Positions 3,256 to 20,030 of a DNA stretch of 37,031 bases are shown one piece after another. Location: assembly GCA_028287305.1 (NCBI GenBank), contig JAQBPX010000010.1, positions 1-37,031 of the forward strand, in the 5' to 3' direction. The notes under the pieces are model-generated. The model saw only the letters and a program-made list of their open reading frames with translations. It was not told the origin of the DNA and searched no databases. How positions within the stretch are numbered: the first letter of the stretch is position 1; each line of letters begins with the position of its first letter. This DNA is from Gemmatimonadota bacterium (lineage in GTDB: Bacteria > Gemmatimonadota > Gemmatimonadetes > Gemmatimonadales > Gemmatimonadaceae). The position numbers were made by a program, and so were the translations under genes.

Positions 3256-4550
3256 TTCGTCCGGCGATCCTCTACGCGCTCGACCCGCGCGCCCAGCGCG
3301 CGGAGGCGCTCGTCGATGCGCTCGTAGCCGCGCTCGATCTGCGACACGTTGTTGATGATGCTCTCGCCCTCGGCCGCGAGCGCCGCGATGAGCATCGCCA
3401 TCCCCGCCCGGATGTCCGGCGACTCCACCTCGGCCGCGCGCAGCCGGCTGGGGCCCGCCACGATGGCCCGGTGCGGATCGCAGAGCACGATCTTGGCGCC
3501 CATGCCGATCAGCTTGTCCACGAAGAAGAGCCGCGACTCGAACATCTTCTCGTGGATCATGATCATCCCCTCACACTGCGTGGCCGCCACGAGCGCGATG
3601 GACATGGTGTCCGCCGGGAAGGCAGGCCAGGGCTGGTCCTCGAGCTTGGGGACGTGCCCGCCGAGGTCCGACTGGATGCGGCGCTCCTGCTCGGCGGGGA
3701 CCACGAGGTCGTTGCCGTCGATCATGCACGAGATGCCGAGGCGCGCAAAGCCCATCAGCGTGGAGCGCAGGTGCTCGACGCCGGCGTCCTGGATGCGGAT
3801 CTCGCTCTTCGTGACGGCCGCGAGCCCGATGAACGAGCCGACCTCGATGTGGTCGGGCCCAATGGTGTGCGTGGCGCCGTGCAGCGAGCGTCCGCCCTGG
3901 ATGGTCACCTTGTTGGTGCCGATCCCCTCGATCTCGGCGCCGAGCGCGATGAGGAAGTGGCAGAGGTCCTGGACGTGGGGCTCGCAGGCGGCGTTCCGGA
4001 TGATGGTGCTGCCGGTGGCGGCGACCGCCGCGGTGATGGCGTTCTCGGTGGCCGTGACGCTCGGCTCGTCGAGGAAGACGTCGGCGCCCCGCATGCCGCT
4101 GGTCGAGAGGAGGAACTTGTCCTCGAGCTCGAAGTCCACGCCGAGGCGCTCGAGCGCCAGGAAGTGCGTGTCCACGCGACGACGGCCGATGACGTCGCCG
4201 CCGGGAGGCGGCAGCTCGATGCGCCCGCAGCGCGCGAGGAGGGGCGCGGCGAGCAGGATGGATGCGCGGATCTTGCGGCAGAGGTCGGGGTCGAGGCCCG
4301 CGGCGCGCACTTCCTTCGCGTGGATGTGCAGCGTGTTGCGCGCGACCCACTCGGCCTGGGCGCCCACGGAGCGTACGAGCTCGACGAGCGTCTCGACGTC
4401 GCGAATGCGCGGGACGTTCTCGAGGACGACGGGCTGGTCCGTGAGCAGCGAGGCAGCCACGATCGGCAGCGCCGCGTTCTTGTTGCCCGAGGGGCGAATG
4501 GTGCCGGAGAGGGTGTGCCCTCCCTCGACGATGAACTGCAATGCGCCCAT
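3252..4550 (-). CDS. murA: UDP-N-acetylglucosamine 1-carboxyvinyltransferase MurA, Asp-type active site
   Basis: MurA transfers enolpyruvate from PEP to UDP-GlcNAc, the first committed step of peptidoglycan synthesis. The 432-residue protein fits the family from [10 protein letters not shown] (Lys24) through RKIRASILL to the C-terminal [16 protein letters not shown]. The start [11 protein letters not shown] matches family N-termini; open frame extends further upstream but is not MurA-like. The catalytic loop reads [11 protein letters not shown], so Asp119 occupies the position of E. coli Cys115. Enzymes with Asp there are active but insensitive to fosfomycin, as known for Mycobacterium and Chlamydia. 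It is transcribed with pgeF, with a possible promoter at 4614-4643. Confidence 0.97.
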
Positions 4551-16179: not shown

Positions 16180-17214
16180 ATGGCTCGCTGGGTCGTGGTG
16201 CTCGCGGGCGGCGTTGGCTCGCGCTTCTGGCCGCTCAGCACGCCGCAGCGCCCCAAGCAGCTGCTGCCGCTGGTGAACGACGCGCCCCTGCTGACGAACG
16301 CGCTCGAGCGCCTGCGTCCACTGGCAGACGGCGCGCACACGCTGATCCTCACCAACGCGTCGCTCGCCGACGCGATCGCGGTGATGGCCCCCGACCTGCC
16401 GCGCGAGAACATCATCTCCGAGCCGCAGCCCAGCGGCACGGCGGCCGCGCTCGCGTGGGCCGCGCACGTGATCGCGCAGCGCGACTCGCCCACCGCCACG
16501 ATGATTTCGGTCCACGCCGACTGGGCCATCGGGGATGATGAAGGCTTCCGGCTCGCGCTGGTGCAGGCGGCGCGCGCGGCGGAGAAGCACCAGAGCCTGG
16601 TGACGGTAGGCATCGTGCCGGCGCGTCCGGATCCCGGCTTCGGCTACATCCAGCCGGGCGCGCCGGTGGATGGCGTGGTGCGGCGCGTGGAGCGATTCGT
16701 CGAGAAGCCCGACCGCGAGCGCGCGACGCGCATGACCGCCGAGGGGTACCTGTGGAACTCGGGGATCTTCGTGTGGCGCGTGGGGGACTTCCTGGAGGAG
16801 CTTCGCGCGCACTGCCCGGAGGTGGCGCCGGTGCTCGCCGCGTATCCCGACAACATCGCGCAGTTCTTCGCGGCCGTGACGCCGGTGGCGGTGGACGTGG
16901 GCGTCATGGAGCGCAGCGCGAAGGTGCTCGTGGTGCCGGGCGAGTTCGGCTGGGACGACGTGGGCACCTGGGGCGCGCTGCATCGCGTGCGCGCGCACGA
17001 TCCGCAGGGCAACGCGGCGAGCGGGCGCGTCTTCGCGCTGGACGCGAGGGGCAACGTGGTGCACGCGGAAAAGGGGAACGTGGTGCTCTACGGCGTGAAC
17101 GACCTGGTGGTGGTGATGCAGGACGGCCTCACGCTCGTGACCACCACCGAGCATTCGTCGGACCTCAAGAAGCTGCTCGACGCGCTGCCGGACGAGCTGC
17201 GGATCCGCGAATGA
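16180..17214 (+). CDS. manC: Mannose-1-phosphate guanylyltransferase
   Basis: This enzyme makes GDP-mannose from GTP and mannose-1-phosphate for surface polysaccharides. The N-terminal nucleotidyltransferase signature is clear: LAGGVGSRFWPLSTPQRPKQ (residues 8-27). It is followed by SVHADWAIGD (the HxPADH-like metal loop variant), FVEKPDRERA and YLWNSGIFVW. At 344 residues it lacks the C-terminal isomerase domain of bifunctional ManC/AlgA. The stop TGA overlaps the first ATG of a chain of mini-ORFs leading to the GlmU-like gene. The gene symbol refers to the GMP activity; other GDP- or UDP-sugar pyrophosphorylases of this family cannot be excluded. Confidence 0.9.
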   Translation: MARWVVVLAGGVGSRFWPLSTPQRPKQLLPLVNDAPLLTNALERLRPLADGAHTLILTNASLADAIAVMAPDLPRENIISEPQPSGTAAALAWAAHVIAQRDSPTATMISVHADWAIGDDEGFRLALVQAARAAEKHQSLVTVGIVPARPDPGFGYIQPGAPVDGVVRRVERFVEKPDRERATRMTAEGYLWNSGIFVWRVGDFLEELRAHCPEVAPVLAAYPDNIAQFFAAVTPVAVDVGVMERSAKVLVVPGEFGWDDVGTWGALHRVRAHDPQGNAASGRVFALDARGNVVHAEKGNVVLYGVNDLVVVMQDGLTLVTTTEHSSDLKKLLDALPDELRIRE

Positions 17215-17280
17215 GCGCGCATCCATGAGCGCGCAGCGATGAGCGCGCATCCATGAGCGCGCAGCGATGAGCGCACAGCG
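17211..17280 (+). repeat. Five tandem 14-bp repeats that encode a chain of overlapping mini-ORFs
   Basis: Units start at 17211, 17225, 17239, 17253 and 17267, and read ATGAGCGCGCATCC or ATGAGCGCGCAGCG (last copy one base different). The sixth, partial copy (ATGAGCGCG) is the start of the GlmU-like gene at 17281. Each unit opens a reading frame of five codons (MSAHP or MSAQR), and each TGA stop overlaps the ATG of the next (ATGA). The first ATG likewise overlaps the manC stop, so the chain is continuous from manC to the downstream gene. The repeat looks like an amplified coupling junction. Confidence 0.9.
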
Positions 17281-18519
17281 ATGAGCGCGTACCTGCTGGA
17301 CGATCCGCGCGCGCAGCAGTTCGAGCCCTTCGCGCTCACCCGCCCCGCGGGCGAGCTGCGCGCCGGCGTCGTGCTCACGCGCGAGCGCTGGCACGTGGTG
17401 CTCGGCGTGCCGGTGGCGGCATCGCTGTGCGCGCCGCACCTGGATGGGTTCGAGGAGCCCGACGCGGCCGCCGTGATCACGGGCGGCGAGATCGCGGCGG
17501 GGAGCCTGCTGGTGAATGCGCGCGCGCTGCCGGCGCTGCAGCGGGCGATGGTGGCGGACGCGCGCGCCTGGCGGATCGCGGACCGCATCGCGGCGGTGCG
17601 CGTGAACGCGGCGGTGCCGGTCGCGTCGCTGGTGAGGGGCGCGGTGAGCTTCGAGGCGCTCGCGGTGGGGGCGCAGCCGGTGGAGCTTCCGGGTCACTGG
17701 GCCGCGGAGGTGTGGGACTACGTCCGGCTGCTCCCCGAGATGCTGGCGAGCGACATCATGGCGCTCGGCGCGGCCATGAAGCCGGTGCGACCGGAGGGCT
17801 GCCTGATCATCGGCATGCATCCCGTGTTCGTGGAGCAGGGCGCGGTGATCGAGCCGCACGCGTGCTTCGACGTGTCCGCCGGGCCCGTGCTCGTGCGCGC
17901 GGGCGCACACGTCCACGCGTTCACGCGAGTGGTGGGACCGTGCAGCATCGGGCGCGGCGCGCAGGTGACCACCGACCGCGTGGCCGCCTCGAGCATCGGT
18001 GACCGCTGCAAGGTGCACGGGGAGATGAGCAACACCATCATGCTCGGGCACTGCAACAAGGGGCACGACGGATTCGTGGGGCACTCGTACCTGGGCCGCT
18101 GGGTGAACCTGGGCGCGGGCACGATCACGAGCAACCTGAAGAACACCTACGGGCCGGTGGCGCTCTGGACGCCCGGGGGCGTGCGCGACAGCGGGATGCA
18201 GTTCCTGGGCACGCTGTTCGGCGACCATGCGAAGACCGGCATCGGCACCACGCTCAACACGGGCACCGTGCTGGGCGCGGGGGCGAACGTCTTCGGCGGC
18301 GCGATGCCGGGCAAGGCCGTGCGCCCCTTCGCGTGGGGCGATGGCGAGGGCGCCTCCACGTGGCGGCAGGACAAGTTCCTCGAGGTGGCGGAGCGCGTGA
18401 TGGCGCGCCGGGACGTTGCACTCAGCGACGGGGCGCGTCGTCAACTGGAGGCCGCGTATGCGCGCGGCACCACGGGGGCGCTGGCGGATGCGTGGCACGT
18501 GACGCGAGGAGACGGGTGA
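17281..18519 (+). CDS. Alternative-type GlmU: putative sugar nucleotidyltransferase with left-handed beta-helix
   Basis: This 412-residue protein resembles the GlmU variant best known in Bacteroidota, proposed to make UDP-GlcNAc from GlcN-1-P. The N-terminal half is a divergent nucleotidyltransferase-like domain (FALTRPAGELRAGVVLTRERW). The LLPEML segment near residue 154 leads to the second half, a left-handed beta-helix with hexapeptide repeats (ASSIGDRCKVHGEMSNTIM; GHSYLGRWVNLGAGTITSNLKNTYGPV), the last typical of GlmU-type acetyltransferases. The classical GxGxRM motif is absent, so nucleotidyl transfer is not assured. It follows manC through the repeat chain. Its TGA overlaps the next GTG (GTGA). 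Confidence 0.75.
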   Translation: MSAYLLDDPRAQQFEPFALTRPAGELRAGVVLTRERWHVVLGVPVAASLCAPHLDGFEEPDAAAVITGGEIAAGSLLVNARALPALQRAMVADARAWRIADRIAAVRVNAAVPVASLVRGAVSFEALAVGAQPVELPGHWAAEVWDYVRLLPEMLASDIMALGAAMKPVRPEGCLIIGMHPVFVEQGAVIEPHACFDVSAGPVLVRAGAHVHAFTRVVGPCSIGRGAQVTTDRVAASSIGDRCKVHGEMSNTIMLGHCNKGHDGFVGHSYLGRWVNLGAGTITSNLKNTYGPVALWTPGGVRDSGMQFLGTLFGDHAKTGIGTTLNTGTVLGAGANVFGGAMPGKAVRPFAWGDGEGASTWRQDKFLEVAERVMARRDVALSDGARRQLEAAYARGTTGALADAWHVTRGDG

Positions 18520-19333: not shown

Positions 19334-19449
19334 ACGGCGGCTGGGGTGGGGCGGCTGGGGTAGGTCGGCTGGAGGTGAACTGCGCAACGGCCACGGCGCG
19401 AGCGACAACGGCGGGAATGGCGGCTGGGAACGGCGGGGGAAGGCGGCTG
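19334..19449 (+). repeat. Left G-rich repeat block of the four-helix-bundle island
   Basis: The octamer GGCGGCTG occurs four times here (19336, 19350, 19419, 19442), plus a GTCGGCTG variant at 19364. The 21 bases 19334-19354 are a perfect inverted repeat of 19905-19925. GTGAACTGCGC (19375-19385) and CACGGCGCGA (19392-19401) also recur inverted on the right at 19929-19939 and 19963-19972. Runs of GGGG make quadruplex formation possible. No gene is seen between 19329 and 19460. Confidence 0.8.
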
Positions 19450-19460
19450 ACGTGGTTCGG

Positions 19461-19847
19461 CTACTTTCGGAAGAAACGGCGCTCCTCGTTCTCGCCCCGT
19501 TCACGCACCGTCTTCATCAGGCCCGTGAGCAGCTGCTGGATGTGAGCGATCGTTTTCTGCGCTTCGGCCAGGAATCGGCTCGTGGGGTACGCGCGCTTCG
19601 CGCGCCGTAACTGCGTGGTGGCCTCGGCTACACTGCCCATTCCCGTGGACAGGTACTGGTAATACTCCTTGTTCGTTTCCTTCTTGCTGCCTTCAGCGAT
19701 CGCGTCCGGAATCGAGCCCGTCGATCGCTCGAGTTGCAGCAGCACGGGTCGCCGCAGCGACCGCGGCATGTCGATCACGAACTGCTGCGTATCGGTCGCG
19801 AGTTTTTCGGCAAGCTGGTAGACGAGCAAATCTTCGTAGCGGCGCAT
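19461..19847 (-). CDS. Four-helix-bundle protein (23S rRNA intervening-sequence protein family)
   Basis: This 128-residue, all-helical protein has the family pattern: RRYEDLLVYQLAEKLA at the start (family: F..L.vw..a..la), RSLRRPVLLQLERSTGSIPDAIAEGS, KEYYQYLSTGMGSVAEATTQL, then a final helix. The family was first met as ORFs in intervening sequences inside 23S rRNA genes, and also occurs as free-standing genes; its function is not known. Here no rRNA is nearby. The ATG at 19847 is preferred; an in-frame TTG two codons upstream is possible. The gene is bracketed by inverted G-rich repeats and lies convergent to the MBL gene, between two otherwise ordinary operons, which suggests an inserted cassette. 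Confidence 0.85.
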   Translation of the reverse strand: MRRYEDLLVYQLAEKLATDTQQFVIDMPRSLRRPVLLQLERSTGSIPDAIAEGSKKETNKEYYQYLSTGMGSVAEATTQLRRAKRAYPTSRFLAEAQKTIAHIQQLLTGLMKTVRERGENEERRFFRK

Positions 19848-19904
19848 GCGCAAGGTTGAACTCGCGCAGGGCCCACTCCGTCATCGACTCCACGCGCGCC
19901 GTAC

Positions 19905-20030
19905 CCGCCCCACCCCAGCCGCCGTCCCGCGCAGTTCACGCGCCCTTCCGATTGTCTGCGGTTCGCGCCGTGGTCGTTGCGCTCCTCTCCGTCAGCCGCC
20001 CTGCCCCAGCCGCCCCACCTCAGCCGCCGT
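19905..20030 (-). repeat. Right repeat block of the four-helix-bundle island
   Basis: The complement CAGCCGCC occurs four times (19916, 19993, 20007, 20021), all opposite in orientation to the left block. The stretch 19905-19925 pairs perfectly with 19334-19354. The region 19848-20098 contains only this block and the groEL terminator; I see no gene in it. The G-rich strand is the one transcribed with the four-helix-bundle gene. Confidence 0.8.

What the first reader, a model, noticed from the sequence alone, without database searches (positions are those of the whole stretch)
17211..17294. Chain of five overlapping five-codon mini-ORFs between manC and the GlmU-like gene
Five 14-bp tandem units each carry an ATG, five codons (MSAHP or MSAQR) and a TGA that overlaps the next ATG. 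The manC stop overlaps the first ATG and the last TGA overlaps the GlmU-like ATG. A 14-bp period changes frame each time, yet the chain never breaks, because every unit terminates and restarts. The number of units could therefore change by slippage without breaking the coupling. A plausible effect is lower expression of the downstream gene per added unit, giving a rheostat rather than an on/off switch. I know of no described system of this form.
Basis: partly seen in the sequence, partly recalled or inferred. Interest (0 to 1): 0.78.

Follow-up and report, generated by a model that had tools for sequence, protein, structure and literature searches.

The report
Tandem start-stop repeats linking two genes
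Five 14-base repeats between two sugar-nucleotide genes each form a tiny gene whose stop overlaps the next start, and similar repeats, differing in copy number between related species, sit at many other gene junctions in this bacterial family, so a ribosome could in principle be handed on through them without losing its place.

Summary
In detail: ATGA recurs at 17211, 17225, 17239, 17253, 17267 and 17281, giving five intact five-codon ORFs chained by 4-nt overlaps between manC and a GlmU-like gene. It is not chance. In the 29 compared family members manC-glmU has no such array, and 21 of them keep a single 4-nt RTGA overlap, so the array is an insertion of 5 x 14 bp at an ancestral coupled junction. 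It is also not unique. The same genome has a second array (ybeY-corC, 2 units). Across 179 genomes of the family, ATGA arrays of period 14 and 11 lie at gene junctions in about half of cases, whereas period 13, which breaks the frame chain, gives 0 of 21. Copy number varies between close species at one orthologous junction (0, 2 or 3 units). An Actinomycetota contig has 7 units. Best reading: recurrent short tandem duplications at stop/start overlaps, kept where the unit length (2 mod 3) preserves termination-reinitiation coupling. The rheostat idea is untested; nothing here shows an expression effect. The closest known kind is the mycobacterial MIRU, which inserts at start codons and keeps -4 coupling but has 53-77 bp units and appears mobile. 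New variant of that kind.

The parts
16180..17214 (+). manC-like mannose-1-phosphate guanylyltransferase CDS (upstream gene); its TGA 17212-17214 lies in the first ATGA
   Evidence: TIGR01479 1e-73 (below that model's cutoff) and PF00483
17211..17224 (+). unit 1, ATGAGCGCGCATCC, mini-ORF MSAHP
17225..17238 (+). unit 2, ATGAGCGCGCAGCG, mini-ORF MSAQR
17239..17252 (+). unit 3, ATGAGCGCGCATCC, mini-ORF MSAHP
17253..17266 (+). unit 4, ATGAGCGCGCAGCG, mini-ORF MSAQR
17267..17280 (+). unit 5, ATGAGCGCACAGCG, mini-ORF MSAQR; its TGA 17282-17284 overlaps the GlmU-like start
17281..18519 (+). GlmU-like CDS (TIGR03991 alt_bact_glmU family), downstream gene; starts ATGAGCGCG like the units
   Evidence: TIGR03991 8.7e-92, 308 bits over a cutoff of 225, aligned from residue 1

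Best explanation
The array is a coupling-preserving start-stop minisatellite. An ancestral 4-nt stop/start overlap (RTGA) between manC and the GlmU-like gene was tandemly duplicated in this lineage, including a step that copied a 28-bp pair, adding 70 bp. Because the unit is 14 bp (2 mod 3) and contains ATGA, every copy is a complete five-codon ORF overlapping its neighbours by 4 nt. A ribosome ending manC can therefore terminate and reinitiate six times in succession and still start the GlmU-like protein in frame. Such duplications arise repeatedly at different junctions in this family and survive when the unit length keeps the relay (11 or 14 bp). Shown here: anatomy, ancestral state, recurrence, period dependence, and copy-number variation between species. 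Inferred: ribosomes translate the mini-ORFs, and the effect on GlmU-like output is mild enough to be tolerated, probably a modest decrease per unit.
For: Ancestral state: all 29 compared family genomes carry manC-glmU without an array; 21 have exactly a 4-nt RTGA overlap. Recurrence: second array in the same genome, ybeY-corC, ATGAGCATCGCCCA x2; the same junction in genus g22 has an unrelated unit x3 (L061), while the other family genomes with a readable ybeY show none. Family survey: arrays with at least 100 open codons on both sides: period 14 17/40, period 11 20/39, period 13 0/21, period 8 2/18, period 17 1/14; single-ATGA baseline 3.0%; 14 vs 13 p=2e-4, 11 vs 13 p=2.4e-5. Restricted to near-identical units: 17/40, 18/36, 0/14, 2/11, 0/8. 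Variation: ABC-transporter junction 3 units (G117), 2 (G096), 0 in seven close relatives, proteins 93-96% identical to the query. Another phylum: histidine kinase to FGGY carbohydrate kinase (glycerol-kinase-like) with 7 units, Actinomycetota contig L127. Why the chain matters: about 20 nt of intergenic distance nearly abolishes coupling and the last 15 nt of the upstream ORF suffice (PMC10666635), so 70 bp without relay ORFs should uncouple the genes. No SD-like match above 3 nt before any of the six ATGs.
Against: No ribosome, protein or reporter data. Several period-14 arrays lie outside junctions (L054, L060, L071), so a mutational source independent of coupling exists. The weakness of period 8, also 2 mod 3, is not explained by frame alone and rests on few arrays. 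The SD-like matches of other genes in the window are weak as well, so lack of SD does not exclude de novo initiation.
Confidence: 0.66

Rival explanations
1. Evolved rheostat: unit number is a selected, slippage-tunable setting of the downstream-to-upstream protein ratio, each unit costing one imperfect reinitiation.
For: Unit number varies between close species; two independent arrays at ybeY-corC; reinitiation efficiency is gene-specific and often below one (PMC6728339).
Against: Arrays are young and not conserved; most orthologues have none; affected genes are diverse (ABC and MFS transporters, sigma-54 response regulator, penicillin-binding protein, CorC); no within-species variation could be tested.
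Confidence: 0.15
2. Bystander repeats: the duplications are neutral and the mini-ORFs are not used; the GlmU-like protein starts by independent initiation at 17281.
For: Short tandem arrays also occur outside junctions; relatives such as L010, L013 and L018 have the pair with gaps of 28-56 nt, so strict coupling is not obligatory.
Against: 0 of 21 period-13 arrays at junctions against 17/40 and 20/39 for 14 and 11; no clear SD before 17281.
Confidence: 0.17
3. A MIRU-like mobile element inserted at the junction.
For: Same target site type, stop/start overlap with -4 coupling (PMC12548453).
Against: No other copy of the unit in the 4.37-Mb genome; the second array has its own unit matching the start of its own gene, as expected for local duplication.
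Confidence: 0.01
4. Assembly artefact.
For: The genome is a 39-contig draft.
Against: 79 bp is short enough for single reads to span; units differ from each other; equivalent arrays appear in many independent assemblies.
Confidence: 0.01

Closest known systems
Mycobacterial interspersed repetitive units (MIRUs), e.g. senX3-regX3 (Supply et al. 1997; PMC12548453; PMC4213456)
   Same: Repeat at a start codon whose internal ORF is coupled to the neighbouring gene by a -4 nt overlap; copy differences between strains.
   Different: MIRU units in senX3-regX3 are 53-77 bp and MIRUs appear mobile and recur at many sites; here units are 11 or 14 bp, resemble the start of the downstream gene, and differ from junction to junction.
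Termination-reinitiation coupling at 4-nt overlapping gene pairs (Huber et al. 2019, PMC6728339; 2023, PMC10666635)
   Same: Each link of the chain is the standard ATGA overlap.
   Different: Known cases have one link between two full genes; here six links in series through five pentapeptide ORFs.
Two-codon minigene in the axe-txe toxin-antitoxin operon (PMC8708949)
   Same: A mini-ORF affects translation of the following gene, dependent on distance and frame.
   Different: A single minigene, not a tandem array; proposed effect is positive through mRNA stability.
TAACTGA heptamer direct repeats upstream of start codons (PMC4679880)
   Same: Short direct repeats containing TGA, placed just before start codons.
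   Different: One fixed 7-bp sequence, mostly intergenic, with no start codon in the unit and no chain of ORFs.
Simple-sequence-repeat phase variation (e.g. PMC6321876)
   Same: Repeat number may change by slippage.
   Different: There repeat number shifts the reading frame and switches a gene on or off; here every unit number keeps the frame.

Membership tests
MIRU | Sits at a stop/start overlap and keeps -4 nt coupling on both sides | tested here: met
   (sequence arrangement only; coupling itself not measured)
MIRU | Unit of about 50-100 bp carrying a longer ORF | tested here: not met
   Units are 14 bp, five codons; senX3-regX3 units are 77 and 53 bp (PMC4213456)
MIRU | Same repeat sequence dispersed at many loci of the genome | tested here: not met
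   DNA search of the own genome finds only this locus; the second array has a different unit
MIRU | Copy number differs between strains | tested here: inconclusive
   Differs between close species at other junctions; no second strain of this species was available
Termination-reinitiation gene pair | ATGA/GTGA 4-nt overlap of stop and start | tested here: met
   Six ATGA links; 21 of 29 orthologous pairs have the plain overlap
Termination-reinitiation gene pair | Downstream translation depends on translation of the upstream ORF | not testable with these tools
   Needs reporter fusions or ribosome profiling
SSR phase variation | Unit loss or gain changes reading frame or promoter spacing | tested here: not met
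   Each unit terminates and restarts, so frame is kept for any unit number
SSR phase variation | Repeat number changes at high rate within a culture | not testable with these tools
   No read data available

The most novel reading that the evidence does not exclude
A widespread class of start-stop minisatellites with 11- or 14-bp units acts as a graded, slippage-tunable translational attenuator between operon genes, each added pentapeptide ORF lowering the downstream-to-upstream protein ratio by a roughly constant factor.
Probability: 0.15. Interest if true: 0.82.

Novelty: new variant of a known kind. Interest (0 to 1): 0.62.

Why it matters
If the relay works, these arrays are natural experiments in serial termination-reinitiation: the same gene pair occurs with 0, 2 or 3 links in sister species, so the per-step efficiency of reinitiation could be measured directly. 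They also show how operon junctions can absorb insertions of tens of bases without uncoupling, a short-unit and apparently non-mobile counterpart of MIRUs, and annotation pipelines are unlikely to report ORFs this short.

Tried and rejected
RNA structure as the reason for the array: the fold of 17195-17310 is no better than shuffles (z -0.56). A promoter or terminator in the junction: none found. A dispersed or mobile unit: no other copy in the genome. A general 14-bp tandem-repeat bias of this genome: in 365 kb of the genome the period spectrum shows no excess of 14. Single-copy duplications at junctions in 1.2 Mb of fetched sequence: too rare to use. Period 15 (a multiple of 3) as a control: swamped by in-frame coding repeats.

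Full report
Observation. The sequence 17205-17300 reads exactly as described: six ATGA words at 14-bp steps from 17211 to 17281, the first holding the manC stop and the last the start of the GlmU-like gene. The five units encode MSAHP, MSAQR, MSAHP, MSAQR, MSAQR, each followed by a TGA that overlaps the next ATG. TRF scores it as the strongest tandem repeat of the window, with a 28-bp register fitting better than 14. The pattern occurs in 0 of 100 dinucleotide shuffles. The upstream ORF matches the mannose-1-phosphate guanylyltransferase model TIGR01479 (1e-73, below that model's cutoff) and PF00483; the downstream one belongs to TIGR03991, aligned from its first residue.

Ancestral state. All 30 loci compared in the family, the window included, carry manC directly before the GlmU-like gene. 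In 21 of the 29 relatives the two overlap by exactly 4 nt (ATGA or GTGA); the others have short gaps or alternative starts; none has an array. The array is therefore an insertion of 5 x 14 bp into a coupled junction, specific to this lineage. Its units share ATGAGCGC with the start of the downstream gene, as a local duplication would.

Not unique. The own genome has one more array found with the pattern, between ybeY and corC: ATGAGCATCGCCCA twice, then ATGAGCATCGCATGG, the corC start. The same ybeY-corC junction in a different genus of the family (L061) has three copies of an unrelated unit, ATGAGCGGCAGCAC, while the other family genomes with a readable ybeY have none. The two arrays at this junction thus look like separate events.

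Family survey. ATGA-N10-ATGA-N10-ATGA was sought in 179 genomes of the family, then the same with periods 17, 15, 11, 13 and 8. Contexts of 40 period-14, 40 period-11, 20 period-13, 14 period-17 and 20 period-8 places were fetched, without regard to genes. With at least 100 open codons ending at the first stop and at least 100 beginning at the last start, junction arrays were 17/40 (14), 20/39 (11), 0/21 (13), 2/18 (8) and 1/14 (17); a single random ATGA in the same sequences qualifies in 3.0%. A test of codon-position GC on both sides gave 14 (period 14), 14 (period 11) and 0 for the rest. Keeping only near-identical units gave 17/40, 18/36, 0/14 (13), 2/11 (8) and 0/8 (17). Period 13, which breaks the relay, is thus absent from junctions while 11 and 14 are common there. 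Six further period-14 loci (L284-L289) were picked by eye and are excluded from these counts. Limits: the sets are small, the fetched period-14 and period-11 lists were taken mainly from near-identical units while period 13 also included diverged ones (hence the filtered count), and the contrast with period 8 is only suggestive (p 0.02-0.18).

Variation. At an ABC-transporter junction in genus g22, G117 has three units, G096 two, and seven close relatives (93-96% identical proteins) have none, with the same ATGA overlap. G096 groups with a zero-unit species rather than with G117 on the gene tree, with moderate support. At an MFS-transporter junction G098 has two units and G100 three, the first beginning with GTG. 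Unit number therefore changes on short evolutionary scales. No two strains of one species were available, so slippage within a population is not shown.

Other phyla. A scan of 85,000 species for five ATGA words at 14-bp spacing returned mostly 7-bp arrays not at junctions, but also an Actinomycetota contig in which a histidine-kinase-like ORF and an FGGY carbohydrate kinase (glycerol-kinase-like) are joined by seven units. The architecture is not confined to one family. The taxon of the window itself is not named by the tools.

Mechanism. Published measurements show that intergenic distances of about 20 nt almost abolish termination-reinitiation in E. coli and Haloferax, and that the last 15 nt of the upstream ORF are enough to support it (PMC10666635). 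Seventy extra bases without relay ORFs would thus be expected to uncouple the genes, whereas a five-codon ORF ending in a 4-nt overlap provides what is needed at each step. None of the six ATGs has more than a 3-nt match to a Shine-Dalgarno sequence, although other genes in the window are weak too. The relay is the best-supported reading; that ribosomes actually translate the mini-ORFs, and what each costs, is inference. Whether unit number is tuned by selection is open; the young, scattered distribution over diverse genes favours tolerated insertions.

Known kinds. A 2025 review describes MIRUs as apparently mobile repeats that insert at start codons so that an internal ORF is coupled to the gene at -4 nt, probably minimising the effect of insertion (PMC12548453); senX3-regX3 carries 77- and 53-bp units in strain-dependent arrangement (PMC4213456). 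The present arrays work like that but fail two MIRU features tested here: unit size, and a shared dispersed sequence. Nine literature searches found no description of 11/14-bp start-stop arrays; the library lacks most subscription papers, so this is weak evidence of novelty.

Noticed in passing
window 19336-19377 and 19993-20028: Two 14-bp-period tandem repeats, GGCGGCTGGGGTGG and CAGCCGCCCCACCC, are reverse complements up to rotation and flank a small ORF (19461-19853, minus strand) that looks like a four-helix-bundle/intervening-sequence protein; possibly a small mobile element.
   Followed up: no
G000 whole genome: The reversed control pattern AGTA-N10-AGTA-N10-AGTA matched 67 times in the own genome and dozens of times in a few relatives such as G065, suggesting another period-7 or period-14 repeat family.
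   Followed up: no
L211 and L216: Long period-13 arrays (12 and 9 units) with TGA in every unit, outside gene junctions.
   Followed up: no
L157 about 4486-4542: Alphaproteobacterial UbiB/ABC1-like gene whose start region is tandemly repeated four times (ATGATCCGCTCCCG) in what looks like its leader, with no upstream gene overlapping: a chain of upstream mini-ORFs.
   Followed up: partly
L300 (G122), ABC-transporter junction: GTGAGTCGCCC followed by GTGAGTGG: a single 11-bp start-stop unit at the junction that carries 14-bp arrays in G117 and G096.
   Followed up: partly
L086 4697-4766, L081 19369-19509, L089 9890: Dispersed 10-bp tandem repeats related to CCGCGGACGA / GTCCGCGGTA in the own genome.
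   Followed up: no
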